From NCBI RefSeq assembly GCF_029871205.1, contig NZ_SSOJ01000162.1:16797-80796 (forward strand): a DNA stretch of 64,000 nt, in the 5' to 3' direction. A program made the position numbers and the translations under genes. The notes beneath the pieces were generated by a model. It ran no database searches and was not told where the DNA came from. It was given only the letters and a program-made list of their open reading frames with translations. This document shows, piece by piece, positions 33,944 to 46,793 of this stretch (within the stretch, counting starts at the first letter, position 1; each line of letters begins with the position of its first letter). The DNA is from Pseudomonas sp. BN417 (GTDB taxonomy: Bacteria > Pseudomonadota > Gammaproteobacteria > Pseudomonadales > Pseudomonadaceae).

Positions 33944-33975
33944 AAAGGATGGTCGCCTGACCATCCTTTTTTTTT
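33944..33975 (+). terminator. Strong intrinsic terminator after aspA
   Basis: AAAGGATGGTC (33944-33954), loop GCCT, GACCATCCTTT (33959-33969), then a run of T to 33975. It is a perfect 11-bp stem with a U-tract. Confidence 0.95.
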
Positions 33976-34025
33976 GCCTGTGGAAAAGTGCCCGGGCACA
34001 ACACGCCGGCATCGCCCCCATCCGA

Positions 34026-34718
34026 CTAGAGCGAATGCATTTCCGGCGCATTCCGCCGGTATGCCTGCCAACGCCGCCGGGCTTCAGCCACACGCTCGTC
34101 CGATGCACCGCAGAACTGCCGCAGCCATGTCTCGAACATGACGATGTCGGGAAAAAAGTAGTCCTTGCTAAGCCCGGTGCTGCGGGGCGTGTCGTTAGCC
34201 CACTCATCGAACGCCGACGCCTGCAGGTCATCTTCCGGAAAACTGTCGTAATCCTCGACAAAACCGCGAAATTGGCGCAGCACCTCGTTCATATGGGCCT
34301 GGACACTACGGTCACCCGCCTGGATCAGCTGGAAGCCGCCATGCCTATCCATGAACCGCGCAACGATCAGAGGCAGCTCAGTCTCGGTCAGCGCCCCCAG
34401 CTTCATGCCGAAGCGCTGCATTTCATTCAGCCAACGCTCGATAAAAAGCTGCACGAATGCACCCAGGTCACCCCTCTTGATGCCGACGAACACCATGCAA
34501 TAGCGGGTCTCGACATGCATCGCCAACAGCACGGGCTTTCGCCGTACCCTGATGGCGTGGACCACCCAGCGGGAAGGCAGCCGTGGTTCGCCATCCCGGG
34601 AGGCCACATTGTCAGCCTCCTCCCCCGGGGACGGACGCTGCGCACGAGAAAATTTCCTTCCCTTCTCGACCACCGAGAAGAAGTCATCGACAGCCCCGGT
34701 GCAATTGAAGATCAACAC
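34026..34718 (-). CDS. Uncharacterised protein, possibly DUF6933-like
   Basis: A protein of 230 residues with GTG start at 34718, preceded by AAGGAGA. The N-terminus MLIFNCTGAVDDFF and the segment WVVHAIRVRRKPVLLAMHVETRYCMVFVGIKRGDLGAFVQLFIERW resemble small proteins grouped as DUF6933, recalled with modest certainty. No signal peptide, membrane helix or catalytic motif is visible. Codon use is less GC-biased than in its neighbours and it sits alone between aspA and the catabolic island, so it may be acquired. The function is unknown. Confidence 0.7.
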   Translation of the reverse strand: MLIFNCTGAVDDFFSVVEKGRKFSRAQRPSPGEEADNVASRDGEPRLPSRWVVHAIRVRRKPVLLAMHVETRYCMVFVGIKRGDLGAFVQLFIERWLNEMQRFGMKLGALTETELPLIVARFMDRHGGFQLIQAGDRSVQAHMNEVLRQFRGFVEDYDSFPEDDLQASAFDEWANDTPRSTGLSKDYFFPDIVMFETWLRQFCGASDERVAEARRRWQAYRRNAPEMHSL

Positions 34719-34834
34719 CAGCCTGTCTCCTTGTCATCCAGAAATCAGTCAATGTTCCATCGCGGCGAAGCCGCGGGTCGGGCGGAGTGCACGCAAAATG
34801 CCTGAAAATTCGCCAAGGTGCTTACAAAAACGAC

Positions 34835-34868
34835 TCAAGTGATTGAAAAACAACATAGATTGACGCCG
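34835..34868 (+). promoter_or_regulatory. Shared operator, copy 1 (before the binding-protein gene)
   Basis: It starts TCAAGTGATTGAAAAAC and continues AACATAGATTGACGCCG. It matches 37726-37759 at 28 of 34 positions in the same orientation. It lies 67 bases before the ABC binding-protein gene and is probably bound by the LysR regulator encoded at 36775. Confidence 0.7.
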
Positions 34869-34935
34869 CTGGGAGCCGATTGAAACACTGCGGCGGTCCG
34901 TTGCACCGCCCCACAACCAACCGGGAACCACGCCA

Positions 34936-35712
34936 ATGATAAAAACAATCCGTACCCTGGCCGCCGGCATCCTGCTGGCCACCTCCTGCCTCGCTTCGCT
35001 GGCCGCCCACGCCGGCGACCTGGAAACCCTGAAGCAGAAGGGGGAACTGAAGTTCGCCCTGACCGGCAAGTACCCGCCATTCAGCTTCATCGACATGGAC
35101 GGCAAGCTGCAGGGTTTCGACGTCGACATCGGCGGCAGCCTGGCACAACGCATCGGCGTGCAACCCATGCCGGTCACCACCGCCTGGGACGGCATCATTG
35201 GCGGACTGCTGGCCGGCAAGTACGACGCCATCATCGGCAGCCTGGCGATCACCGACGAACGCCTCAAGGCCGTGGACTTCTCCGAACCCTACTACCAGTC
35301 CGGCGCCCAATTGTTCGTCCGCCAGGACAGCCCCGTCCGGGGTATCGACGAAATGGACGGCAAGGTGATCGGCATCACCCTCGGCGAGACCTACGAAAGC
35401 TGGCTGCGCGAGCACAAGCCGAACGTCACCCTGAAGACCTACAAGGGCCTGCCCGATATCCTCCTTGACCTGCAGAACAAGCGCATCGACGGCTTCGTCA
35501 CCGACAAGATCGCCGGCCTGCTGACCATTCGCGACCGGCGCCTGGACGCCAGGCCGGCAGGCGAACTGCTCTATCCGGAAAAGATGGGCATCGCCGTGCG
35601 CAAGGACAGCCCCGAGCTGAAAGCCGCGATCAACGCCGCGCTGGCCGAGATCACCGCCAATGGCACCTACGGCGACATCAGCCAGAAATGGCTGGGAACC
35701 GACATTCGTTGA
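34936..35712 (+). CDS. Amino-acid ABC transporter substrate-binding protein
   Basis: A periplasmic protein of 258 residues; signal peptide 1-26 (SLAAHAGDLE). It has the polar amino-acid-binding (HisJ/ArgT-like) fold: GKYPPFSFIDMDGKLQGFDVDIGGSLAQRIG, WDGIIGGLLAGKYDAIIGSLAITDERLKAVDFSEPYY, and the C-terminal NGTYGDISQKWLG. It probably binds a basic or acetylated basic amino acid. The matching permease and ATPase are 2.2 kb away (37951, 38610) and share an upstream operator sequence. The deacetylase gene starts 10 bases downstream, in one operon. Confidence 0.92.
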   Translation: MIKTIRTLAAGILLATSCLASLAAHAGDLETLKQKGELKFALTGKYPPFSFIDMDGKLQGFDVDIGGSLAQRIGVQPMPVTTAWDGIIGGLLAGKYDAIIGSLAITDERLKAVDFSEPYYQSGAQLFVRQDSPVRGIDEMDGKVIGITLGETYESWLREHKPNVTLKTYKGLPDILLDLQNKRIDGFVTDKIAGLLTIRDRRLDARPAGELLYPEKMGIAVRKDSPELKAAINAALAEITANGTYGDISQKWLGTDIR

Positions 35713-35722
35713 GGGCCGAACG

Positions 35723-36754
35723 ATGCTGACCTACTTCCATCCCGACCAGTACCTGCACCATCCACGCAGCTACCTTTCGCGCGGACAGATGCGCACCCCG
35801 CAGGAGATTCCCGAACGCCCGCGACGCCTGCTGCAAGCGGTCGAGGGCCTCGGCTTCGAGCTGCGCCAGCCGGAGGACTTCGGCATGCAGCCGCTCCAGG
35901 CCGTGCACAGCGCCGAATACCTGCGCTTCCTCGAGGAAGCCCATCGCGAATGGCTGGCCACCGGGCAGGACTGGGGCGACGAGGTGATGTCCAACGTCTT
36001 CATCCGCGAACCCAACCCGCTGCGCGGCATTCTCGCCAAGGCCGCCCGTTATCTGGCCGATGGCAGTTGCCCGGTGGGCGAACAGACCTGGCAAGCCGCC
36101 TACTGGTCGGCGCAAAGCGCCATCGCCGGGGCCCGCGCCCTGCTCGATGGCCGCTCCCAGGCCTACGCCCTGTGCCGTCCGCCGGGACACCATGCGCGGC
36201 ACGACGCGGCCGGCGGCTTCTGCTACCTGAACAACGCCGCCATCGCCGCCCAGTACCTGCGCCAGGGCCACGGACGGGTGGCGATCCTGGACACCGACAT
36301 GCACCACGGCCAAGGCATCCAGGAGATCTTCTACGAGCGCGAAGACGTGCTCTACGTGTCGATCCACGGCGATCCGACCAACTTCTATCCGGTGGTCGCC
36401 GGCTTTGAAGACGAACGCGGAAGCGGCGCCGGACACGGCTACAACATCAACCTCTGCATGCCCCACGGCTCACCGGAATCGGTGTTCTTCGAGCAGCTGG
36501 AGCGCGCCATCGCCGCGCTGCGTCGCTTCGAGCCGGACGTGCTGGTGCTCTCGCTGGGGTTCGACATCTACGTGGAAGACCCTCAGTCGCAAGTGGCAGT
36601 GAGCAGCGCCGGCTTCGCCCGGCTCGGCCACGACGTCGGCCTGCTCGGCCTGCCGACCCTGATCGTGCAGGAAGGCGGCTACCACCTGGACAGCCTGCGA
36701 GCCAATGCCGAGCAGTTCTTCGGCGGCTTCCTGGGATCACGGCGCCAGGGCTGA
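35723..36754 (+). CDS. Acetylpolyamine amidohydrolase / HDAC-family deacetylase
   Basis: A zinc deacetylase of 343 residues, close to the length of Mycoplana acetylpolyamine amidohydrolase. The start is ATG at 35723. Catalytic residues are all present: tandem histidines H156-H157 in RPPGHHA, zinc ligands D192 and H194 (DTDMHHGQG), D281 (SLGFDIY) and transition-state Tyr 320 (EGGY). It removes acetyl from an amino group. In this cluster the target could be 4-acetamidobutyrate or its CoA ester, acetylated beta-lysine, or acetylpolyamines. It is co-transcribed with the binding protein. P. aeruginosa has related AphA/AphB enzymes. Confidence 0.92.
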   Translation: MLTYFHPDQYLHHPRSYLSRGQMRTPQEIPERPRRLLQAVEGLGFELRQPEDFGMQPLQAVHSAEYLRFLEEAHREWLATGQDWGDEVMSNVFIREPNPLRGILAKAARYLADGSCPVGEQTWQAAYWSAQSAIAGARALLDGRSQAYALCRPPGHHARHDAAGGFCYLNNAAIAAQYLRQGHGRVAILDTDMHHGQGIQEIFYEREDVLYVSIHGDPTNFYPVVAGFEDERGSGAGHGYNINLCMPHGSPESVFFEQLERAIAALRRFEPDVLVLSLGFDIYVEDPQSQVAVSSAGFARLGHDVGLLGLPTLIVQEGGYHLDSLRANAEQFFGGFLGSRRQG

Positions 36755-36774
36755 CCACGCCGCGCGCATCGGCT

Positions 36775-37707
36775 TCAGCCCGCTGGCCCCTGGCGCAACG
36801 CGTCGGCGCAGTCTTCGCGCCGACGCATCTCCTCCACCACCGCGTCCAGGGCCTGGCGGATATCGCCGACCAGGCGATTGCTCTTCAGCTCCTGCCGGTA
36901 CACGAGATAGAAATTGAACCACTGCTCCAGGGCGAAGGGCCGGCTGCACAGGCGGGGGTTTTCGCAGAGGTCGGCGGCGGTGATCGCATTCACCAGGCTC
37001 AGGCCACCGCTGAACTCGATCATCGCGCCGATGGACGACAGGCTGGCCTGCAGCTCGTGGCGCAACAGGCGGCGCAGGCTGTTGTCGCGGTAGATCAAGT
37101 GGTCGGACTGAATGGGTTTGATCAGGGTCTGGCCGTCCAGGTCGGCCAGTTCGATCTGCGCCTTTGCCGCCAACGGGCTGTCCGCCGGCAGTAGCGCGCG
37201 CATTCGCGCCGCCACCACCGGCGTAAACAGCAGGTTCGGCTCATGCACCTCGTAGGCCACCAGGGCGAGGTCCAGCCGCCCGGCCTCGACCTCGGCGATC
37301 AGCCAGCCGCTGGCAGCGACGTCGAGGGAGACGGCGATCCCCGGGTGCGCCCGCAGGTAGTGCCACACCAGACGCGGGCCGAAGCGGTGCCCCAGGCCCG
37401 GCGCGCAACCGAGCCTGAGCGAAGCCACGCCGCTGTCCTGGAGCACGGAAATGTCCCCTTCGATACGCGCCAGGTTGGCCATCAGCTGCACCGCCTCGTT
37501 GAGCATGTAGCGCCCCGCCGCGGTGATCTGCAGCCGCTGGTTCTCACGGGCGAACAGGCGAATCTTCAGCGACTCCTCCAACCGCGCCAGGGCATGGCTG
37601 ACCGCCGATTGCGTTAGCCCCAGCTGCAGGGCCGCCTGGCGGGTAGAGCCGGTGGTGGCGATGGCGTGGAAGATTTCCAGGTCCCGCAGGCTGTAGTCCG
37701 TACGCAT
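36775..37707 (-). CDS. LysR-family regulator of the catabolic island
   Basis: A protein of 310 residues. The N-terminal helix-turn-helix (DLEIFHAIATTGSTRQAALQLGLTQSAVSHALARLEE, about 8-44) is standard; the effector domain is at about 95-300. It is convergent with the deacetylase gene and divergent from the permease gene. A 34-bp sequence in the divergent gap recurs before the binding-protein gene, so it most likely controls both operons of the island. Confidence 0.92.
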   Translation of the reverse strand: MRTDYSLRDLEIFHAIATTGSTRQAALQLGLTQSAVSHALARLEESLKIRLFARENQRLQITAAGRYMLNEAVQLMANLARIEGDISVLQDSGVASLRLGCAPGLGHRFGPRLVWHYLRAHPGIAVSLDVAASGWLIAEVEAGRLDLALVAYEVHEPNLLFTPVVAARMRALLPADSPLAAKAQIELADLDGQTLIKPIQSDHLIYRDNSLRRLLRHELQASLSSIGAMIEFSGGLSLVNAITAADLCENPRLCSRPFALEQWFNFYLVYRQELKSNRLVGDIRQALDAVVEEMRRREDCADALRQGPAG

Positions 37708-37725
37708 GGCAGAGCTCCGGGTCGG

Positions 37726-37759
37726 TCAAATGATTAAAAAATATCATAAATTGACGCTG
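37726..37759 (+). promoter_or_regulatory. Shared operator, copy 2 (LysR/permease gap)
   Basis: It starts TCAAATGATTAAAAAATAT and continues CATAAATTGACGCTG. ATGAT-N8-ATCAT is a perfect short dyad of LysR type. It begins 19 bases before the LysR gene on the other strand, as expected for an autoregulated LysR gene. Confidence 0.7.
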
Positions 37760-37803
37760 ATTTTCCCCAATGCAAGACTCACCTCGCCCCATCCAAGCAC
37801 TGC

Positions 37804-37824
37804 AACCCTTACAAACAAAGGGTT
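37804..37824. promoter_or_regulatory. 21-bp palindrome before the permease operon
   Basis: AACCCTT-ACAAACA-AAGGGTT is a perfect 7-bp dyad with a 7-base centre, about 127 bases before the permease start. It may be an additional regulator site; there is no copy before the binding-protein gene. Confidence 0.45.
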
Positions 37825-37950
37825 TCAACGCAAAAGAATGGTATGAAAACAATTGATAGGTAAGACCCGGGCAATCTCCACCAGCCGCCTGCGTGAGGGC
37901 ACCTCACCAGGGCGCGTCCAGCCCTCCGTCGACAGCACAAGAGAATAAGA

Positions 37951-38613
37951 ATGTTCGACTTCAACCTAGTGCTCCAATACCTGCCGATGCTGTTCAAGGC
38001 AGCCGGCATCACCGTCGAGCTGACCGTGCTCGCCATTCTCCTCGGCCTGCTGTTCGGCCTCCTCGCCGCCCTCGCCCGGCTGTCGCGGCACGCGCCTCTG
38101 CGCTGGCTCGCCGCCGGCTACATCTGGCTGATCCGCTCCACGCCGCTGCTGGTGCAGCTGTTCATCATCTACTTCGGCCTGCCGCAGTTCGGCCTGGAGC
38201 TTTCCCCCTTCGTCTCCGGGGTGATCGGCCTGGCGCTCAACGTCGGCGCCTACAACGCAGAAACCATCCGCGCCGGGATCCAGGCCATCCCCCACGGGCA
38301 GGTCGAAGCCTCGCGCTCGCTCGGTTTCGGCGCCGGCCGGACCATGCGCCTGATCATCCTGCCGCAGGCTTTCAAGCTGATCGTGCCGCCGCTGGGCAAC
38401 AACCTGATCATCCTGATCAAGGACACCTCGCTGGTTTCCACCATCACCCTGGCCGAACTGTTCATGCGCACCCAGCAACTGGTCGGCGCCACCTTCAAGC
38501 CGTTCGAGCTGTATTTCGCCTGCGCGCTGATCTACGCGCTGCTCACCACCATCACCAGCCTGATGCTGCAACTGTTCGAGCGGCGCCTGCTGCTCAAGGG
38601 AGGACGCACATGA
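37951..38613 (+). CDS. Amino-acid ABC transporter permease
   Basis: A membrane protein of 220 residues of the HisM/GlnP type, with about five helices. The segment [25 protein letters not shown], the coupling loop [34 protein letters not shown] and [16 protein letters not shown] are the family signature. It probably works as a homodimer because no second permease is present. It carries the substrate captured by the protein at 34936. Its stop overlaps the ATPase start (ATGA). Confidence 0.95.
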
Positions 38614-39371
38614 ACACCGGCAAAGCGCAGATCCAGTTGAAGAGCCTGCACAAACGCTATGGCGCGCTGGAAGTCCTCAAAGGCATCGACCTGGACGTGC
38701 ACAAGGGCGAAGTGGTGGTGCTGATCGGTCCCAGCGGCTCCGGCAAGAGCACCCTGCTGCGCTGCGTGAACATGCTCGAGGAGCCGAGCGCCGGCCAGAT
38801 CCTGTTCCAGGACCAACTGGTCAATGACCGCAAGCGCAGTCACCGGGCCAGGGAGAGGTACCTCAATGCCATGCGCATGAAGGTCGGCATGGTGTTCCAG
38901 CACTTCAATCTGTTTCCGCACCTCACGGTCCTGGAAAACATCACCATCGCACCGACCCAGCTGCAGGGCGTCGACCCGCGCCAGGCCCGTGCCGAAGCGG
39001 AAGAGCTTCTGGCCAAGGTCGGCGTGCTGGACAAGCGTGACGTCTACCCCGGCAACCTCTCCGGCGGCCAGAAGCAGCGCGTCGCCATCGCCCGGGCGCT
39101 GGCGCTCAAGCCCGACGCCATGCTGTTCGATGAACCGACCTCGGCGCTCGACCCGGAAATGGTCGGCGGCGTCCTCTCGGTCATGGAAAGCCTGGGCAGC
39201 AGCGGCATGACCATGATGGTGGTGACCCACGAGATGCGCTTCGCCGAAAAGGTCGCCGACCGCGTGGTGTTCATGGCCGACGGCAACATCGTCGAGCAGG
39301 GCACGCCGGCCCAGGTATTCGGCGCACCACAACAACCACGCACCCGGCAGTTCCTCGCGGATATCGGCTGA
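38610..39371 (+). CDS. Amino-acid ABC transporter ATPase
   Basis: An ATPase of 253 residues, starting at ATG 38610 inside the permease stop (ATGA overlap). Walker [10 protein letters not shown], signature [15 protein letters not shown], Walker [15 protein letters not shown]. The loop [16 protein letters not shown] is typical of polar amino-acid importers (GlnQ/HisP). It energises the permease at 37951. The aminotransferase gene follows after 33 bases. Confidence 0.96.
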
Positions 39372-39404
39372 CGCCGCTGCCGCCCGTTTCCCATGGGGTC
39401 CCAC

Positions 39405-40733
39405 ATGTCCGATTACCTGTTCTACCAATCCGCCACGCGCCTGCCGACCATCGACCGTGCCGAAGGCATCTACGCCTGGGACGAGCATGGCAAGCGCTAC
39501 ATCGACGCCTGCTCCGGAGCCATAGTCGCCCAGCTCGGTCACGGCCACCCGGCGGTGCGCGAAGCCATGCTGGCGCAGCTGGACAAGGTTGCCTTCGCCT
39601 ACCGCACCCAGTTCGAAAACCAGCCGGCGCTGGACCTTGCCGAACGCCTGGTGAACCTCACCGGCCAACGCTTCGACCGGGTGTTCTTCTCTTCCGGCGG
39701 CTCCGAGTCGGTGGAGTCGGCGCTGAAGATCGCCCGCCAGTACTGGTTCAACCGGGGCGAGCCGCAGCGCCAGGTGTTCATCAGCCGCAAGCCGGCGTAC
39801 CACGGCTCAACCATGGGCGCGCTGGCGATGACCAGCTACACCCCGCTGACCGCGCCCTTCGAACCCATGTTCCAGCACTATCCGAAGATCGCCTCGCCGA
39901 CCCAGTACCGGGTACCCGCCGGCCTGACCGCCGAGGCCCACGCCCTGGCCTGTGCCGACGAACTGGAAGCGGCGATCCTGGCGGTCGGCGCGGAGAAGGT
40001 CGCGGCCTTCATTGCCGAACCGGTCGGCGGCGCCAGCACCGGCGCGGAAGTCCCTCACGCCGCCTACTTCCCGCGCATCGAGGAGATCTGCCGACGCCAC
40101 GGCATCCTGCTGATCCTCGACGAAGTGATGACCGGCATCGGCCGCACCGGCCGCTGGTTCGGTTACGAGCACTGGAACGTAAAGGCCGACATCGTCTGCC
40201 TGGCCAAGGGCCTCGGCGCCGGCTACTACCCGGTGTCGGCGGTGCTCACCCGCGCCGAACTCACCGAGCCGATCCTCGCCTCCGGCGGCTTCCAGCACGG
40301 CTATACCTACGCCGGCAATCCCCTGGCCTGCGCCACCGCGCTGGCCGTGCTCCAGGCCATCGAGGACGAGAACCTGGTACAGCAGGTCGCCGACAATGGC
40401 GCCTACCTGCTGCAACGTCTGCAAGCGCTCGGCGAACGCTACGATTTCATCGGCGATGTACGCGGCCTGGGCTACCTCCAGGCGATCGAGTACGTCGCCG
40501 ACCGCGACAGCAAGGAGCCCTTCCCGCTGGCGCGCAACGTCAGCGACGCCATGACGCGCCTGGCCCGCGAGCGCGGCCTGATCATCTACCCACGCCGCTC
40601 GCTGATGGGCGAGAAAGGCGACCATACGCTGATCTCTCCGCCGCTGGTGACCAGCCGTACCCAGTGCGACGAGATCGTCGAACTGCTCGGCCAGACCTTC
40701 GACGCCTTCCAGGCCCAGCAGGTCCGCCCATGA
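39405..40733 (+). CDS. Class III (omega-type) aminotransferase
   Basis: A PLP enzyme of 442 residues. ATG 39405 (MSDYLFYQSATRLPTIDRAEG) is preferred because GGGG lies at ribosome-binding distance; ATG 39393 is an alternative. PLP Lys 268 lies in LAKGLGAGY, Asp 239 in LDEVMTGIGRTG, and the phosphate-binding SSGGSESVESALK is present. It resembles the YodT-type aminotransferases that in Bacillus subtilis occur with a CoA-transferase pair and lysine 2,3-aminomutase. It probably removes a side-chain or beta amino group, giving a 3-oxo acid for the following CoA-transferase. Confidence 0.93.
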   Translation: MSDYLFYQSATRLPTIDRAEGIYAWDEHGKRYIDACSGAIVAQLGHGHPAVREAMLAQLDKVAFAYRTQFENQPALDLAERLVNLTGQRFDRVFFSSGGSESVESALKIARQYWFNRGEPQRQVFISRKPAYHGSTMGALAMTSYTPLTAPFEPMFQHYPKIASPTQYRVPAGLTAEAHALACADELEAAILAVGAEKVAAFIAEPVGGASTGAEVPHAAYFPRIEEICRRHGILLILDEVMTGIGRTGRWFGYEHWNVKADIVCLAKGLGAGYYPVSAVLTRAELTEPILASGGFQHGYTYAGNPLACATALAVLQAIEDENLVQQVADNGAYLLQRLQALGERYDFIGDVRGLGYLQAIEYVADRDSKEPFPLARNVSDAMTRLARERGLIIYPRRSLMGEKGDHTLISPPLVTSRTQCDEIVELLGQTFDAFQAQQVRP

Positions 40734-41410
40734 GCAAGTGTTTTTCCCTGGCCGACGCCATCGCCCCGGTGGCCGATGGCAGCACCATCATGGTCGGTGG
40801 CTTCGGCTCGCCGGGCACGCCCTTCACCCTGCTGGACGAGTTGGCCCGGCAAGGCAAGCGCGACCTGGTGATCATCAAGAACGACGCCAACCAGGACGGC
40901 TACGGCGTCTCGCGGCTGATCGAGGCCGGGGCGGTGCGCAAGATGGTCACCACCCACCTCGGCCTCAGTGGCGCGGCGCGGCGCGCCTACACCGCCGGCA
41001 CGCTCGAGGTGGAGTTCGTCTCCCAAGGCCTGTTCGCCGAACGCATCCGCTGCGCGGGCGTTGGCCTACCCGCCTTCCTGACCGACCTGGAGGTCCCCGA
41101 GGAACTCGGCCAGGCGCGCCAGACGGTGAACTATGGCGGCCGCCACCTCTATATAGAACCGGCACTGAAGGCCGACTACGCCTTCATCACCGGACACGCC
41201 GCCGACCACAGCGGCAACCTTCGCCACCAGGGCACCTCACGCAACTTCGGCGCGCTCATGGCGATGGCTGCCGACTGCGTGATAGCCGAGGTCTACGCCC
41301 TCCACGAACAACCGCTGCGGCCCGACAGCATCCACACCCCCGGCCTCTTCGTGCACCGCCTGGTGCAGGTCGACAGGAGCTCCCATGAATACCAGCCCAT
41401 CCCCCGCTGA
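40730..41410 (+). CDS. 3-oxoacid CoA-transferase subunit A
   Basis: The alpha subunit, 226 residues; ATG 40730 overlaps the aminotransferase stop (ATGA). Family features are VADGSTIMVGGFGSPGTPFTLLDEL at the N-terminus, LVIIKNDANQDGYGVSRLIEAG, and EVEFVSQGLFAERIRCAGVGLPAF. With subunit B it moves CoA from succinyl-CoA or acetyl-CoA onto a 3-oxo acid. It overlaps subunit B by 26 bases. It is similar to AtoD/ScoA/YodS-type proteins; the substrate is inferred from context only. Confidence 0.94.
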   Translation: MSKCFSLADAIAPVADGSTIMVGGFGSPGTPFTLLDELARQGKRDLVIIKNDANQDGYGVSRLIEAGAVRKMVTTHLGLSGAARRAYTAGTLEVEFVSQGLFAERIRCAGVGLPAFLTDLEVPEELGQARQTVNYGGRHLYIEPALKADYAFITGHAADHSGNLRHQGTSRNFGALMAMAADCVIAEVYALHEQPLRPDSIHTPGLFVHRLVQVDRSSHEYQPIPR

Positions 41411-42038
41411 CCCGCGCCAGGTGATCGCCCGGCGCGCCGCCGCCGAAGTGCGCGACGGTCAGCTGATCAACCTCGGCATCGGCCTGCCGACCCTGATCCC
41501 GGCCTTCGTTCCCGACGGCGTGCAAGTCTGGATCCACTCGGAAAACGGCATAGTCGGCGTCGGTCCGCAGGCCACCGCGGATCAGCTCGACGCCGAACTG
41601 ATCGACGCCGGCGGCGGCTATGTCACCCTGGTTCCCGGCGGCGCCATCGTCGACAGCGCCACGTCGTTCGGCATCATCCGACGTGGCCTGCTGGACATCA
41701 CCTTCCTCGGCGCACTGCAGGTCTCCCGGCATGGCGACCTGGCCAACTGGCTGGTGCCGGGCAAGGTGGTCGCCGGTATCGGCGGCGGCGCCGAGCTGGC
41801 GCAGAAGGCCCGCCGGGTGATCGTCACCATGCCGCACTGCGACAAGGACGGGCACGCCAAGATCGTCGAACGCTGCGACCTGCCCGTGACTGCCAATCGC
41901 TGCGTGAGCCGGATCATCACCGAGCACGCGGTATTCGATATCGATGCCGAAGGCCTGCTGCTGCGGGAAATCCTCAGCGATCTCAGCCCCACCCAACTGC
42001 AAGCGATCACCGCGCCTTTCCGCGACGCCCGCACCTGA
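41385..42038 (+). CDS. 3-oxoacid CoA-transferase subunit B
   Basis: The beta subunit, 217 residues, carrying the catalytic glutamate E53 in SENGIVGVG. Other family stretches are LINLGIGLPTLIPAFVP, GGAIVDSATSFGIIRRGLLDITFLGALQV and MPHCDKDGHAKIV. ATG 41385 is preceded by CAGGAG. It works only as a complex with the subunit encoded just upstream. Confidence 0.95.
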   Translation: MNTSPSPADPRQVIARRAAAEVRDGQLINLGIGLPTLIPAFVPDGVQVWIHSENGIVGVGPQATADQLDAELIDAGGGYVTLVPGGAIVDSATSFGIIRRGLLDITFLGALQVSRHGDLANWLVPGKVVAGIGGGAELAQKARRVIVTMPHCDKDGHAKIVERCDLPVTANRCVSRIITEHAVFDIDAEGLLLREILSDLSPTQLQAITAPFRDART

Positions 42039-42051
42039 TCCGGAGTCCGTC

Positions 42052-43248
42052 ATGAATCACACCTCGACGGCGGCCTATGTCGCCGCCTACGTCCGCACGC
42101 CCATCGGCCGTGCCTACAAGGGCGCCTTCAACGATACCGACGCGCCAAGCCTCGCCGCCCTGGCGCTGGATGCACTGGTCCGGCGCAGCGCCATCGACCC
42201 CGAGCTGATCGACGACGTGATCCTCGGTTGTGCCCTGCCGGAAGGCTCGCAGTATTACAACATCGGCCGCATGGCGGCGCTCGCCTCCGGCCTGCCGTTG
42301 CGCACCCCGGGCATGACGGTGGACCGCCAGTGCTCCTCCGGACTGATGTCCATCGCCATCGCCAGCCAGCGCATCCAGGCCGGCGACGGCGAGCTGATCC
42401 TGGCCGGGGGGGTGGAATCCATCAGCCTGGTGCAAAACGCGCACATGAATGCCTACCGGCGCCAGGATCGCGGACTGATGCAGCACCTGCCCAGCATCTA
42501 TATGCCAATGGCGCAGACCGCCGAATTGGTGGCCCAGCGCTACGCGGTCAGCCGCGCAGAGCAGGACGCCTATGCCTTGCGCAGCCAGCAACGCGCTGCT
42601 CACGCCCGGGAACGCGGCGTCTTCGCCGAGGAGATTGTCGGCGTACGCGTGCAGTCCCTGCGCACGGACGGGGACAGCGGCCGGGAAGAGTCGGTCGAGA
42701 TCCACCTGGAGCACGACGAATGCGCTCGCCCGGCGACCAGCCTGGAAGGCCTCGCCGCATTGAAGCCGGTCTTCGACAACGGCAGCGTCACCGCCGGCAA
42801 CGCCTGCCCGCTATCGGACGGCGCCGCCGCCTGCCTGGTGGTTTCCGAGGCGATGCTGCGCCGTCAGGACCTGCTCCCGTTGGGGCGCCTGGTCAGCTGC
42901 GTGGTGGAGGGCTGCGCGCCTGACGAGATGGGCATCGGCCCGGTACCGGCGGTGCGCAAGCTGCTGCGGCGCAACGGCTTGCAGGTGGAAGACATCGGCC
43001 TGTGGGAACTCAACGAGGCCTTTGCCTCCCAGGTGCTGTACTGCATCCGTGAGCTGCAGCTTCCCGAGGAGCGGGTCAACGTCAACGGCGGCGCCATCGC
43101 CCTTGGCCACCCCTACGGCATGAGCGGTACCCGCCTGGTCGGGCATGCCTTGCTGGAGGCTCGGCGCCGGCAGGTGAAATACGCGGTGGTGACCATGTGC
43201 ATCGGCGGTGGCCAAGGCGCTGCGGCCCTGTTCGAGTGCTCGCTGTAA
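42052..43248 (+). CDS. Thiolase (acetyl-CoA C-acyltransferase family)
   Basis: An enzyme of 398 residues; ATG 42052 after CCGGAG. Catalytic C94 is in DRQCSSGLMSI, histidine in NGGAIALGHPYGMSGTR, and the second cysteine in MCIGGGQGAA; NEAFA is also present. It cleaves a 3-oxoacyl-CoA with CoA to acetyl-CoA and a shortened acyl-CoA. As the last gene of the island it would act on the product of the CoA-transferase. GMSGTR replaces the commoner GASGAR, which may affect substrate choice. Confidence 0.95.
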   Translation: MNHTSTAAYVAAYVRTPIGRAYKGAFNDTDAPSLAALALDALVRRSAIDPELIDDVILGCALPEGSQYYNIGRMAALASGLPLRTPGMTVDRQCSSGLMSIAIASQRIQAGDGELILAGGVESISLVQNAHMNAYRRQDRGLMQHLPSIYMPMAQTAELVAQRYAVSRAEQDAYALRSQQRAAHARERGVFAEEIVGVRVQSLRTDGDSGREESVEIHLEHDECARPATSLEGLAALKPVFDNGSVTAGNACPLSDGAAACLVVSEAMLRRQDLLPLGRLVSCVVEGCAPDEMGIGPVPAVRKLLRRNGLQVEDIGLWELNEAFASQVLYCIRELQLPEERVNVNGGAIALGHPYGMSGTRLVGHALLEARRRQVKYAVVTMCIGGGQGAAALFECSL

Positions 43249-43350
43249 CCCACCACCCGGCCAGAACTGCGGACGCGAATGGAATGGCGACAGGTTGGAT
43301 CGCGACTGTGGAAAAGTGGTCGGGGCGCCCCACGCGGAAGCCGATTCATC

Positions 43351-43436
43351 CGTAGGGTGGATACCGCTTTTCATATCCACCAACGGAGTCGAGCCGGACC
43401 ACGATGGTGGACCGGTGAAGCGTGGTCCACCCTACA
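43351..43436. repeat. GTAGGGTGG inverted repeat
   Basis: GTAGGGTGG (43352-43360) and CCACCCTAC (43427-43435) enclose inner repeats (GGTGGACCGG and its partner). The stop codon of the MocR gene (43432-43434) lies in the right arm, so the repeat has shaped the end of that protein. Confidence 0.75.
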
Positions 43437-44898
43437 AACGCCACGCCTTGCGAAGGGTGCGGATCGCCTCGGCGATCTGTGCTTCGGGCACGGCGGCGAA
43501 GCCCAGCACCAGCCCGGCGCGGTTATCCACAGGCTCGGCGCTGTTCTCCAGCCAGTATTCGCTGAGGCCATTCATTTCCACCCCGGCGGCGCGGGCGGCG
43601 GCCAGCAGTTCCCGTTCACGGGCCAGGCTCGCGACGCGCACGCAGAGGTGTAGCCCGGCGTCCACCGGCGGCATGGGCGCGCAGCCGGGAATCGCCGCCG
43701 GCCAGTCCTGCAGCAGGGCGTCGCGACGCGCCCGCGCGGCCTGGCGCATGCGCCGCACATGGCGCTGGAAGTGGCCCGCGGCGATGAATTCGGCCATCAC
43801 CGCCTGGGTGCCGATTTCCGAATGGCGCATGTCCAGCGCGCGGCGCTGGGCAAAGGCCTCGGCCAGCGCCGGCGGCAGCACCAGGTAGCCCAGGCGCAGC
43901 GCCGGGAAGGCGATCTTGCAGAAGGTGCCGACGTAGATCACCCGCCCCTGTCGATCCAGCGCCGCCAGGGGCGCCAACGGGGTGCCGCTGTAGCGGTACT
44001 CGCCGTCGTAGTCGTCCTCCACTATCCAGCCGTCGCGACGCTCGGCCCATTCCAGCAGCTCCAGCCGCCGCGCCAGGGACAGGGTGACGCCCGTCGGGTA
44101 CTGATGCGAGGGCGTGACATAGACCAGCCGGCAATCCTCCAGTTGCGACAGCGTGGCGCTGTCCAGGCCATCGTTATCCACAGGCACGCCGCAGAGCTGC
44201 GCGCCGGCCACCGCGAAGGCATGGCCGGCGGCGCGGTATCCGGGGTTCTCGATGGCAACCCGGTCACCGGGCTGCACCAGCAACTGGGCACAGAGGCTGA
44301 TGGCCTGCTGGGCGCCGCAGGTGATCACCACCTGCGCCGGATCGCAGGCGAGCCCACGGCTGCTGCGCAGATAGGCGGCCACCAGTTCGCGCAAGCCCAG
44401 GTCGCCGGCCGGGTCGCCATAACCCAGGCGCGCCGGCGACGGCTTGCGCCAGAAGCGCGCCGAGAGACGCGCCCAGGTCTCGAACGGAAACAGGTCGAAG
44501 GCCGGCACTCCGACTCGGAAAGCCCGTGGCGCCCCCGCTACCGGCAGCGGCAGGTGGTGGTCCTGGAGCCGTTGCAGCGCCGGGCCCGGCGCAGGCCCGG
44601 CGGGACTCGGAAGCGCCGCGCGGCTGGCGCCGGACAGTTCGGCCACATAGGTGCCGTCGCCGACCCGGCCCTCCACGTAGCCCTCGGCGTAAAGCTGGTC
44701 GAAGGCGCGGGTCACGGTATTGCGGGAAATCCCCAGTAGCGTCGCCAGGTCGCGGCCGGCAGGCAGGCGCGTGCGGCTACCCAGGCGGCCATCGAGGATG
44801 CGCTCGCGCAGGGCCTGGTAGAGCTGGCGCGCCAGGCCCTGGCCAGGGTCCAGGCGGATGCCGGAAAGGTCGACGGGAAGCGGTGGCATGGCAGGCAT
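43432..44898 (-). CDS. MocR-type regulator (GntR winged helix plus aminotransferase domain)
   Basis: A protein of 488 residues. The GntR winged helix is at about 20-88 (LARQLYQALRERILDGRLG...ISRNTVTRAFDQLYAEGYV) and the class I aminotransferase-like domain at about 120-485. PLP lysine K328 is in GTFCKIAFPALRLGYL, and DDYDGEYRYSG is conserved. It uses PLP as a sensor, as PdxR, GabR and TauR do. It is divergent from the PaiB-like gene, and two direct repeats of TGGCTCT lie in the gap. It probably activates or represses that operon. Confidence 0.93.
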   Translation of the reverse strand: MPAMPPLPVDLSGIRLDPGQGLARQLYQALRERILDGRLGSRTRLPAGRDLATLLGISRNTVTRAFDQLYAEGYVEGRVGDGTYVAELSGASRAALPSPAGPAPGPALQRLQDHHLPLPVAGAPRAFRVGVPAFDLFPFETWARLSARFWRKPSPARLGYGDPAGDLGLRELVAAYLRSSRGLACDPAQVVITCGAQQAISLCAQLLVQPGDRVAIENPGYRAAGHAFAVAGAQLCGVPVDNDGLDSATLSQLEDCRLVYVTPSHQYPTGVTLSLARRLELLEWAERRDGWIVEDDYDGEYRYSGTPLAPLAALDRQGRVIYVGTFCKIAFPALRLGYLVLPPALAEAFAQRRALDMRHSEIGTQAVMAEFIAAGHFQRHVRRMRQAARARRDALLQDWPAAIPGCAPMPPVDAGLHLCVRVASLARERELLAAARAAGVEMNGLSEYWLENSAEPVDNRAGLVLGFAAVPEAQIAEAIRTLRKAWRL

Positions 44899-45652: not shown

Positions 45653-46105
45653 ATGTCCCGTACACCGCTCGAAATCCGCCCGGTCGGCGCCGCCGACCAT
45701 GCCGCCTGGCTGCCGCTCTGGCAGGGCTACCAGCGCTTCTACAAGACCGAGATCGCCGCCGCGACCAGCGCCGTCACCTGGCAGCGCTTCCTCGACCCGG
45801 CCGAGCCCATGCACGCCGCGCTGGCCTGGCGCGACGGCGAGGCCGTGGGGATGGTGCACTGGATCTTCCACCGCAGCTGCTGGACCACGGGCGACTACTG
45901 CTACCTGCAGGACCTCTTCGTGGCCGAAGGCGTGCGCGGCGGCGGTATCGGCCGCCAGCTGATCGAACATGTCTATGCCCAGGCCCGTGCCGCCGGCGCC
46001 TCACGGGTGCATTGGCTGACCCACGAGACCAACGAAGTCGCCATGCGGCTTTACGACGACATCGCCGACCGCCCCGGCTTCGTCCAGTACCGCAAGATCC
46101 TCTGA
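45653..46105 (+). CDS. GNAT-family N-acetyltransferase
   Basis: A protein of 150 residues. The acetyl-CoA loop is in LQDLFVAEGVRGGGIGRQLIEHVYAQA (Q/RxxGxG/A pattern RGGGIG) and the C-terminus has WLTHETNEVAMRLYDDIADRPGFVQYRK, as in small amine or diamine acetyltransferases. It lies in the operon of the PaiB-like gene. The substrate is unknown; amines or polyamines are plausible. It could also supply acetylation for the nearby catabolic island, but nothing links them directly. Confidence 0.9.
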   Translation: MSRTPLEIRPVGAADHAAWLPLWQGYQRFYKTEIAAATSAVTWQRFLDPAEPMHAALAWRDGEAVGMVHWIFHRSCWTTGDYCYLQDLFVAEGVRGGGIGRQLIEHVYAQARAAGASRVHWLTHETNEVAMRLYDDIADRPGFVQYRKIL

Positions 46106-46118
46106 CCGGAGAACTACC

Positions 46119-46793
46119 ATGACCTCGCCGCACCTGCCCGACTGGCAGCCCTGCCCAGTCCCCACCCACGCCCCGCTGCCGGGCCGTTTCGTGCGCCTGG
46201 AAGCGCTGGACCCGGCACGCCACGGGGACGACCTCTGGCAGGCCCTGCAGGGGCCGGACCCGGCGCTCTGGGATTACCTGGCCTACGGCCCGTTCGACAG
46301 CCGCGAACCCTTCGATGCCTGGCTGGCCAGCAATGCCGAGAGCCGTGACCCGCTGTTCTACACGGTGATCGACCAGGCAAGCGGCCGCGCCCTGGGCATC
46401 CTCAGCTACCTGCGCATCGCGCCGAAGGATGGCTGCATCGAGATCGGCCACATCGCCTTCGGCAAGGCCATGCAGCGCACGCCGGGCTCCACCGAGGCGG
46501 TCTGGCTGCTGGCCCGGCACGCCTTCGACGACCTCGGTTACCGCCGCCTGGAGTGGAAGTGCAACGCACGCAACGCCCGCTCCATGCGCGCCGCCGAACG
46601 CCTCGGCTTCACCCACGAGGGATTGTTCCGCCAGCACATGGTGGTCAAGGGACAGAATCGCGACACCGCCTGGTTCGCCATCATCGATGGTGAATGGCCG
46701 TCGCGGCGCGAGGCGTTCGAGCGCTGGCTGGCTGTGGATAACTTCGATGACGAAGGACGCCAGCGCCAATCCCTGGAAGGGTTCAGGGGTTGA
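46119..46793 (+). CDS. GNAT acetyltransferase of the RimJ/RimL type
   Basis: A protein of 224 residues. It has the features of the RimJ/RimL group: GRFVRLEALDPARHGDDLW, GILSYLRIAPKDGCIEIGHIAFGKAMQRTPGSTEAVWLLARHAFDDLGYRRLEWKCNARNARSMRAAERLGFTHEG. It modifies an amine or an N-terminus. It is the last gene of the PaiB-like operon, 13 bases after the previous one, and is followed by a hairpin. Confidence 0.92.
   Translation: MTSPHLPDWQPCPVPTHAPLPGRFVRLEALDPARHGDDLWQALQGPDPALWDYLAYGPFDSREPFDAWLASNAESRDPLFYTVIDQASGRALGILSYLRIAPKDGCIEIGHIAFGKAMQRTPGSTEAVWLLARHAFDDLGYRRLEWKCNARNARSMRAAERLGFTHEGLFRQHMVVKGQNRDTAWFAIIDGEWPSRREAFERWLAVDNFDDEGRQRQSLEGFRG

What the first reader, a model, noticed from the sequence alone, without database searches (positions are those of the whole stretch)
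34936..43248. Catabolic island that fits an acetyl-beta-lysine to GABA pathway with an HDAC-family deacetylase
Seen: ABC importer (34936, 37951, 38610), HDAC/acetylpolyamine-amidohydrolase with a full catalytic set (35723), LysR (36775), class III aminotransferase (39405), CoA-transferase A and B (40730, 41385) and thiolase (42052), most with ATGA or very short junctions. Known: B. subtilis yodT-S-R with yodQ, yodP and kamA groups an aminotransferase, a CoA-transferase pair and a deacetylase with beta-lysine formation. Biochemistry from Barker's group on a Pseudomonas (recalled) described N6-acetyl-beta-lysine transamination, 3-keto-6-acetamidohexanoate, its CoA ester, thiolysis and a deacetylase acting on 4-acetamidobutyryl-CoA. 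Inference: this island encodes that route, with an HDAC-type enzyme as the deacetylase. No lysine 2,3-aminomutase or clear beta-lysine acetyltransferase is in the window, so imported N6-acetyl-beta-lysine (an osmolyte) may be the substrate. Alternatives: acetylpolyamines or a simpler beta-amino acid such as 3-aminobutyrate.
Basis: partly seen in the sequence, partly recalled or inferred. Interest (0 to 1): 0.85.

Follow-up and report, generated by a model that had tools for sequence, protein, structure and literature searches.

The report
Probable acetyl-beta-lysine degradation gene cassette
A block of nine genes, inserted as a unit into this Pseudomonas-type chromosome, most likely imports and breaks down an acetylated beta-amino acid (best guess acetyl-beta-lysine), using an enzyme of the histone-deacetylase family where some relatives use an unrelated enzyme; this would give genes to a pathway known so far from enzyme work.

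Summary
In detail: importer, HDAC-family enzyme, LysR, class III aminotransferase (AT), CoA-transferase A/B and thiolase lie where stated. (1) The block (34816-43239) is a cassette, 82-83% identical in four genomes of another genus; its site is empty in 17 of 17 congeners. (2) Of 43 AT loci, 40 of them gathered by AT similarity, 38 carry one of two alternative beta-keto-acid cleavage modules near the AT (CoA-transferase 14, BKACE 24), 37 a deacylase (HDAC 26, M20 7, both 4), 18 a GNAT acetyltransferase: acetylate, transaminate, cleave, deacetylate. (3) HDACs were most simply recruited twice; the window type lacks the PIS motif of polyamine enzymes. (4) A repeat before both transcription units makes HDAC and AT one probable regulon. 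(5) GabT/GabD lie elsewhere. Against the exact substrate: no AblA or AblB match in this genome, no GNAT in the cassette, and no AblA over the cut-off in 51 genomes. Acetyl-beta-lysine is the best candidate, not shown. No paper seen in nine search listings describes this gene set.

The parts
33990..43430 (.). DNA present here and absent from the same place in congeners (about 9.4 kb; edges approximate)
   Evidence: in 17 of 17 same-genus genomes the fumC side (window to 33,974-34,006) is followed by the MocR side (window from 43,306-43,465) with 0-1.7 kb of other DNA between (8 of 17 at most 103 bp), and no match in between except to the 90-bp repeat at 43349-43441
34816..43239 (.). the cassette proper
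   Evidence: 82.3-82.7% identical over about 8.4-8.5 kb in L126-L129 (G166, G147, G108, G174), flanks not matching the window
34838..34868 (+). operator-like repeat, copy 1, upstream of SBP-HDAC
   Evidence: 84% over 32 bp to copy 2, E 2.5e-4 within the window; two copies kept in all 5 cassettes; the exact-pattern hits are by construction
34936..35712 (+). periplasmic solute-binding protein (family 3)
   Evidence: PF00497 144 bits; nearest solved chain 3vv5
35723..36754 (+). HDAC-family amidohydrolase, proposed deacetylase
   Evidence: PF00850 253.7 bits; nearest solved chain 3men, 577.5 bits; DPQS in place of DPIS
36775..37707 (-). LysR-type regulator
   Evidence: PF00126 and PF03466
37729..37759 (+). 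operator-like repeat, copy 2, in the LysR/permease intergenic stretch
37951..38613 (+). ABC permease
   Evidence: PF00528
38610..39371 (+). ABC ATPase
   Evidence: PF00005
39405..40733 (+). class III aminotransferase (AT), proposed N6-acetyl-beta-lysine transaminase
   Evidence: PF00202 362.7 bits; clade of 43 locus ATs against 14 other ATs of this genome, support 94/86
40730..41410 (+). 3-oxoacid CoA-transferase subunit A
   Evidence: TIGR02429 over cut-off
41385..42038 (+). 3-oxoacid CoA-transferase subunit B
   Evidence: TIGR02428 over cut-off
42052..43248 (+). thiolase
   Evidence: TIGR01930 over cut-off; best but below-cut-off model NF005494, as for the thiolase of L147
34026..34718 (-). 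DUF6933 gene; inside the inserted DNA but outside the cassette shared with other genomes
   Evidence: PF22016 82.5 bits

Best explanation
The cassette encodes import and complete use of an N-acetylated beta-amino acid, most likely N6-acetyl-beta-lysine. The ABC importer brings it in; the AT makes 6-acetamido-3-oxohexanoate; the CoA-transferase activates it; the thiolase splits it to acetyl-CoA and 4-acetamidobutyryl-CoA; the HDAC-family enzyme removes the acetyl group from the four-carbon product (as acid or CoA ester); and the resulting GABA goes through GabT/GabD to succinate. The acetyl group would protect the distal amine: 6-amino-3-oxohexanoate should close to a five-membered pyrroline ring (chemical inference). 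Shown: gene content, cassette transfer, association of the AT with alternative beta-keto-acid cleavage modules and alternative deacylases, GabT/GabD in the genome. Inferred: every reaction, the substrate, the order of deacetylation, and joint control by the LysR protein.
For: Of 43 AT loci, 38 have exactly one cleavage module near the AT (24 BKACE, 14 CoA-transferase), 37 a deacylase, 18 a GNAT; the modules exchange on the AT tree (at least 4 changes of cleavage type, 6 of deacylase type). L177 (AT-GNAT-CoTA-CoTB-M20-thiolase) and the named plasmid loci of Shinella and Phyllobacterium (AT-BKACE-GNAT-HDAC) and Parasedimentitalea (AT-BKACE-HDAC) show the logic. Control: 0 of 19 other class III AT places in this genome have such neighbours within 1.5 kb. 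Gate motif PIS in 4 of 4 polyamine-type enzymes, PQS in 7 of 7 window-type, PF or PL types in 23 of 23 HDACs of other AT loci. Shared repeat. GabT and GabD over cut-off.
Against: No AblA or AblB match in the genome and no GNAT in the cassette; the nearest relative of the Shinella GNAT in this genome is weak (31%, E 3.4e-15). None of 11 and none of 40 genomes searched holds AblA over the cut-off. The binding protein has Thr where the recalled acidic side-chain contact of LAO-type proteins sits; in the aligned AT loci, with or without a GNAT, only L130 has an acidic residue there (L190 is not aligned at that place), so the pocket does not separate acetylated from free substrate. L041 and L050, the nearest loci outside Pseudomonadaceae, show no thiolase match in the held DNA; their contigs end about 1.5 and 2.9 kb after CoTB. 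Nine loci of one AT subgroup add an N,N-dimethylformamidase-like gene that this scheme does not need. The BKACEs scanned (L137, L138) pass the cut-off of a model named for another substrate.
Confidence: 0.5

Rival explanations
1. Same chemistry, different substrate: another beta-amino acid with an acylated distal amine or other neutral polar side chain (beta-ornithine, acylated 3,5-diaminohexanoate, an opine-like compound), again cleaved to acetyl-CoA and deacylated.
For: The comparative evidence fixes reaction types, not the chain. The BKACEs of L137 and L138 score over the cut-off of a model named for 3,5-dioxohexanoate. No aminomutase over the AblA cut-off in 51 genomes. Extra DMFA2_C genes in nine loci.
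Against: A GNAT plus a deacetylase implies a second amine that has to be masked, and the five-ring closure argument singles out beta-lysine among familiar beta-amino acids (inference); I recall no other compound with known biochemistry of this kind.
Confidence: 0.27
2. The deacylase acts first: the imported compound is acylated on the beta-amino group itself, HDAC (or M20) frees the amine, then AT, CoA-transferase and thiolase follow (for example N-acetyl-3-aminobutyrate).
For: HDAC is in the unit with the binding protein, apart from the AT unit; M20 ArgE/DapE enzymes usually free amines next to a carboxylate (family knowledge).
Against: Does not explain the GNAT near the AT in 18 of 43 loci.
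Confidence: 0.12
3. Acetylpolyamine degradation: HDAC frees putrescine or similar, AT removes its amine.
For: Nearest solved relative 3men is named acetylpolyamine aminohydrolase (the depositors' name, activity not checked); Pot-like importers in some relatives.
Against: PIS motif absent; the genome already has two PIS-type enzymes, 42% identical; a polyamine route needs no CoA-transferase/thiolase or BKACE, yet 38 of 43 loci have one.
Confidence: 0.05
4. The HDAC is a passenger (regulatory protein deacetylase) and the rest degrades a simple beta-amino acid such as 3-aminobutyrate.
For: HDAC relatives at about 64-78% mostly sit in another context: of 83 HDAC loci compared, an MFS-type gene is within 5 kb in 65, a LysR in 59, an M20 hydrolase in 46.
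Against: HDACs of two separate clades are found at AT loci, 30 of 43 loci have one, and a shared repeat precedes both units.
Confidence: 0.06

Closest known systems
Aerobic beta-lysine degradation in a Pseudomonas (Barker's group, 1970s-80s; recalled, no text seen)
   Same: predicted reactions: N6-acetyl-beta-lysine transamination, beta-keto acid to CoA ester, thiolysis, deacetylation at the 4-acetamidobutyryl level, GABA to succinate
   Different: no genes were assigned as far as I recall; no acetyltransferase in the cassette; thioesterase activity of the deacetylase untested for an HDAC
Bacillus subtilis kamA-yodP-yodQ-yodR-yodS-yodT (gene order recalled)
   Same: class III AT, CoA-transferase pair and deacetylase together; L130, L136, L140, L147, L177 and L185 have AT, CoTA, CoTB, an M20 deacylase and a thiolase in a row (GNAT after the AT in L177, thiolase reversed in L140)
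   Different: no kamA or yodP-type gene; HDAC in place of M20; importer and thiolase added. KamA is BSU19690 and YodT BSU19740, physiological roles open (PMC6522883, passages seen). No Bacillus sequence was compared here
[quoted passage not shown]
   Same: BKACE of the sister loci is of that family (PF05853; L137 and L138 scanned)
   Different: the BKACE stands beside an AT and mostly a deacylase; the window cassette uses CoA-transferase plus thiolase instead
Bacterial acetylpolyamine amidohydrolases (cluster 4 of PMC11532494, passages seen)
   Same: family and catalytic motifs; 42% identity to the two PIS-type enzymes of this genome
   Different: PIS gate motif replaced by PQS; genome context has beta-keto-acid enzymes

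Membership tests
Classical Zn deacetylases (PF00850) | profile match and catalytic His pair, Asp-X-His, second Asp, Tyr | tested here: met
   253.7 bits; all motifs present
Polyamine-type ApaH (cluster 4) | PIS motif | tested here: not met
   PQS in window; PIS in 4 of 4 comparison enzymes
Polyamine-type ApaH (cluster 4) | activity on acetylpolyamines | not testable with these tools
   -
YodT family (NF005375) | curated cut-off 535 bits | tested here: not met
   458.3 bits; linking this model to YodT is from memory
PRK07483 family (NF005685) | curated cut-off 485 bits | tested here: not met
   465.5 bits; another AT of this genome (L204) has 787.2
3-oxoacid CoA-transferase | TIGR02429 and TIGR02428 cut-offs | tested here: met
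   192.9 and 273 bits
PcaF 3-oxoadipyl-CoA thiolase | TIGR02430 cut-off 597 bits | tested here: not met
   363.3 bits; it is a thiolase by TIGR01930
kamA/abl beta-lysine systems | lysine 2,3-aminomutase AblA | tested here: not met
   no match in G000 at E <= 0.001
kamA/abl beta-lysine systems | beta-lysine acetyltransferase AblB | tested here: not met
   no match in G000 at E <= 0.001; the GNATs of L146 and L153 match no NCBIfam model at 1e-8
Barker acetyl-beta-lysine route | beta-keto acid cleavage module near the AT | tested here: met
   window, and 38 of 43 AT loci in all
Barker acetyl-beta-lysine route | deacetylase in the set | tested here: met
   window, and 37 of 43 AT loci in all
Barker acetyl-beta-lysine route | beta-lysine acetyltransferase | tested here: inconclusive
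   GNAT near the AT in 18 of 43 loci, absent from the window cassette
Barker acetyl-beta-lysine route | substrate specificity of AT and deacetylase | not testable with these tools
   -

The most novel reading that the evidence does not exclude
A widespread modular aerobic route for beta-lysine in Pseudomonadota: a GNAT masks the distal amine, an AT makes the beta-keto acid, either CoA-transferase/thiolase or BKACE cleaves it, and an M20 or HDAC-fold enzyme (recruited, most simply, twice) unmasks GABA. The window holds a mobile, GNAT-less version that feeds on already acetylated beta-lysine. This would supply the first genes for N6-acetyl-beta-lysine transaminase and 4-acetamidobutyryl-CoA deacetylase (EC 2.6.1.65 and 3.5.1.51, recalled as sequence orphans) and a role for B. 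subtilis yodQRST.
Probability: 0.42. Interest if true: 0.8.

Novelty: new variant of a known kind. Interest (0 to 1): 0.6.

Why it matters
If right, it joins decades-old enzymology to genes, makes two recalled orphan activities and the unexplained B. subtilis yod operon directly testable, and shows an HDAC-fold enzyme working as a catabolic deacetylase outside polyamine and protein chemistry. The protect-cleave-deprotect logic with interchangeable parts would also be a clean case of pathway mixing by horizontal transfer.

Tried and rejected
Acetylpolyamine degradation was considered and put low (PIS motif absent, two PIS-type paralogues present, beta-keto-acid modules unexplained). PcaIJF-type beta-ketoadipate use was put aside: the thiolase is far below the PcaF cut-off; of the nine annotated plasmid loci opened (the tenth, L155, has no listed features) only the outlying L152 has pca genes. 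Binding-protein pocket comparison did not separate loci with and without a GNAT: led nowhere.

A search for AblA in 40 genomes gave sub-cut-off matches of 303-339 bits in 8 of 20 AT-carrying genomes; the 20 others reach at most 224.5. The 20 others were picked by neighbouring handle; that they lack the AT is presumed from the tally, whose list is cut. The two sets differ in lineage. Of the eight I scanned two: L216 is over the cut-off of TIGR03822 (AblA-like), L219 below it, both KamA-family; L219 has a GNAT-like frame (best RimI, below cut-off) two genes away on the other strand, matching no AblB model. Inconclusive: some hosts may make their own beta-amino acid.

The AT clade of 43 has support 94/86, not the tool's top grade, and the tree warns of long branches, L176 among them. 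The genome searches scored 4 candidates per genome, so tallies are lower bounds. L151, L152 and L154 (43-47%) form an outer clade and are counted as misses. L150 and L194 have HDAC and GNAT but no BKACE by the rule (L150 shows a partial match). L035 (G008; in-frame stop reported) was dropped from the HDAC tree and motif counts because the frame chosen was wrong; L004 was not kept by the HDAC selection. In the HDAC tree I labelled ten relatives as the MFS/M20 group, but only four of them (L036, L042, L048, L058) have all three neighbours, L074 and L111 have LysR and MFS, and L037, L056, L060 and L117 have none. Promoter scan found nothing above chance; GC content inside the cassette (63-69% per kb) does not stand out. 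Structure prediction was not run. Paper searches: (open-licence PMC only; judged from the titles and abstract starts listed, and lists were capped); the Barker papers are recalled, not seen.


Full report
Observation. SBP-HDAC form one unit, the LysR gene is reversed, and permease-ATPase-AT-CoTA-CoTB-thiolase form a second, tightly packed unit. The HDAC keeps its His pair, the metal-ligand motifs and the Tyr. Of 20 places in this genome that match class III aminotransferases, the other 19 have no CoA-transferase, thiolase, BKACE, HDAC or YodQ-type M20 match within the 1.5 kb held on either side.

A discrete, moved cassette. An 8.4-kb block from 34816 to 43239 aligns at 82.3-82.7% with four genomes of another genus of the family (G166, G147, G108, G174), while the DNA beside it does not. 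G166 is the same sequence as the named record Pseudomonas sp. 30_B (L040; 100% over 17 kb). L128 and L129 share the cassette but not the DNA directly beside it on either side. In 17 of 17 same-genus genomes the fumC side joins the MocR side without the block, with 0 to 1.7 kb of other DNA between (8 of 17 at most 103 bp), and none of those 17 has an AT match at the strict limit. The inserted DNA here also holds a DUF6933 gene. Two Burkholderiaceae MAG contigs (L041, L050) carry HDAC, LysR, AT and both CoA-transferase genes at 68-82% with a different importer.

One regulon. A repeat at 34838-34868 recurs at 37729-37759 (84% over 32 bp, E 2.5e-4 in the window). Both copies, one before SBP-HDAC and one in the LysR/permease stretch, are kept in all five cassettes. 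This makes shared control of HDAC and AT likely; binding by the LysR protein is inferred.

What the AT works with. AT relatives were gathered by AT similarity: 5 of 398 family genomes besides the own one (E <= 1e-135), 5 of 369 class genomes (1e-130), 20 of 398 phylum genomes (1e-120), and 10 opened of 26 plasmid records. With the window and the two HDAC-found MAG loci that makes 43 loci. Of these, 38 carry exactly one of two cleavage modules near the AT: CoA-transferase (14, within 6.5 kb) or BKACE (24, within 3.5 kb). The five without are L150, L194, L151, L152 and L154; the last three form an outer clade. Of the 14 CoA-transferase loci, 12 also show a thiolase (37% in L176, on the other strand in L140); L041 and L050 do not, on contigs that end 1.5 and 2.9 kb after CoTB. 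A deacylase is near in 37 of 43: HDAC 26, M20 7, both 4; missing in L191 (contig ends), L139, L178, L151, L152 and L154. A GNAT lies within 3.5 kb in 18 of 43. On the AT tree the cleavage type changes at least 4 times, the deacylase type at least 6 and the GNAT at least 8: parts are swapped while the AT stays. The four M20 proteins scanned (L130, L136, L140, L137) match NF005306 over its cut-off and NF005373 below it; the two BKACEs scanned (L137, L138) are PF05853; the two thioesterases scanned (L137, L146) are 4HBT_2. The GNAT name rests on the record annotation of L146, L148, L150 and L153 and on a Pfam scan of the L130 one.

Reading of the chemistry. CoA-transferase plus thiolase and BKACE are two ways to cleave a beta-keto acid. 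Their exchange beside one AT clade means that the AT product is most likely a beta-keto acid, so its substrate a beta-amino acid (inference). GNAT and deacetylase in one operon suggest that an amine is masked and unmasked. The best-known compound that needs both is beta-lysine, whose unmasked 3-keto product should close to a pyrroline (chemical inference). Barker's group described these reactions in a Pseudomonas (recalled, text not seen). GabT and GabD are present over cut-off, in two adjacent pairs, so GABA could be used.

Why HDAC, and which kind. The window HDAC is closest to 3men (577.5 bits; next 288.2). On the tree the seven window-type sequences sit inside a clade of 17 whose other ten members are not at AT loci, apart from the 23 HDACs of other AT loci (support 99/95). 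The simplest account is two recruitments; the root is not inferred. Over 83 HDAC loci compared, an MFS-type gene lies within 5 kb in 65, a LysR in 59 and an M20 hydrolase in 46 (families identified on L042). The PIS motif of polyamine-type enzymes (PMC11532494, passages seen) is PQS in 7 of 7 window-type sequences, PQS, PQA or PQT in the 10 others of that clade, PF or PL types in 23 of 23 HDACs of other AT loci, and PIS in 4 of 4 polyamine-type enzymes, two of them from this genome.

Against the exact substrate. There is no AblA or AblB match in this genome, none over the AblA cut-off in 11 and in 40 genomes, no GNAT in the cassette, and only a weak relative elsewhere. So N6-acetyl-beta-lysine would have to be imported. 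Eight of 20 AT-carrying genomes do hold KamA-family proteins of 303-339 bits, of AblA-like type in the two scanned, but not beside the AT and in a lineage-biased sample. The binding protein's nearest solved relative is 3vv5, but its pocket comparison was not decisive. Another acylated beta-amino acid remains possible.

Known or new. The reactions are old (recalled); no paper in the listings of nine searches, judged by title and abstract start, describes this gene set (open-licence library only, lists capped). The B. subtilis survey lists KamA as BSU19690 and YodT as BSU19740, leaves KamA's physiological role open and speculates on biotin metabolism for YodT (PMC6522883, passages seen); the present comparison suggests beta-amino acid catabolism instead, by analogy, since no Bacillus sequence was compared. 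I rate it a new variant of a known kind.

Noticed in passing
L155, L188-L195 near the AT: A 549-aa N,N-dimethylformamidase-like protein (PF20254, DMFA2_C, scanned in L155) has 69-80% relatives in 9 of the 10 loci of one AT subgroup (not in L150); L155 is Sinorhizobium, the others are unnamed. L151 has a distant one (25%). Role unexplained.
   Followed up: partly
L042 6270-11020 and similar loci: In many other genomes the HDAC relative follows LysR, an MFS symporter and an M20 hydrolase of the carbamoylase/allantoate type (NF009530 on L042): a second, different pathway for this HDAC clade.
   Followed up: partly
L147 13165-15440, L149 11349-13635: An amidohydrolase (M20D type in L147) plus an alanine racemase gene follow both a CoA-transferase type and a BKACE type locus in two Rhodobacterales plasmids.
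   Followed up: no
window 43349-43438: About 90-bp imperfect inverted repeat at the right junction of the inserted DNA; similar copies lie at other nearby places in most congener stretches.
   Followed up: partly
L140 12896-13687, L177: A creatininase-family gene sits among the importer genes of two CoA-transferase/M20 type loci.
   Followed up: no
L153 (NZ_CP084754.1, Roseateles sp. XES5, marked UNVERIFIED_ORG): Operon genes are 77-94% alike to those of Shinella, an alphaproteobacterium; the organism label may be wrong or the plasmid moved.
   Followed up: no
L204 (G000:C133:16621-17880): This genome has a second, related AT (43%) over the NF005685 cut-off with SBP- and permease-like matches beside it; its pathway was not studied.
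   Followed up: no
window 45653-46105 and 46119-46793: Two GNAT genes lie just outside the inserted DNA, in the flank that congeners also have, so they are unlikely to be the missing acetyltransferase, though not excluded.
   Followed up: partly
L216, L219 (G1086, G1031): KamA-family radical SAM proteins of the AblA-like type in genomes that carry the AT; neighbours do not show an abl operon.
   Followed up: partly
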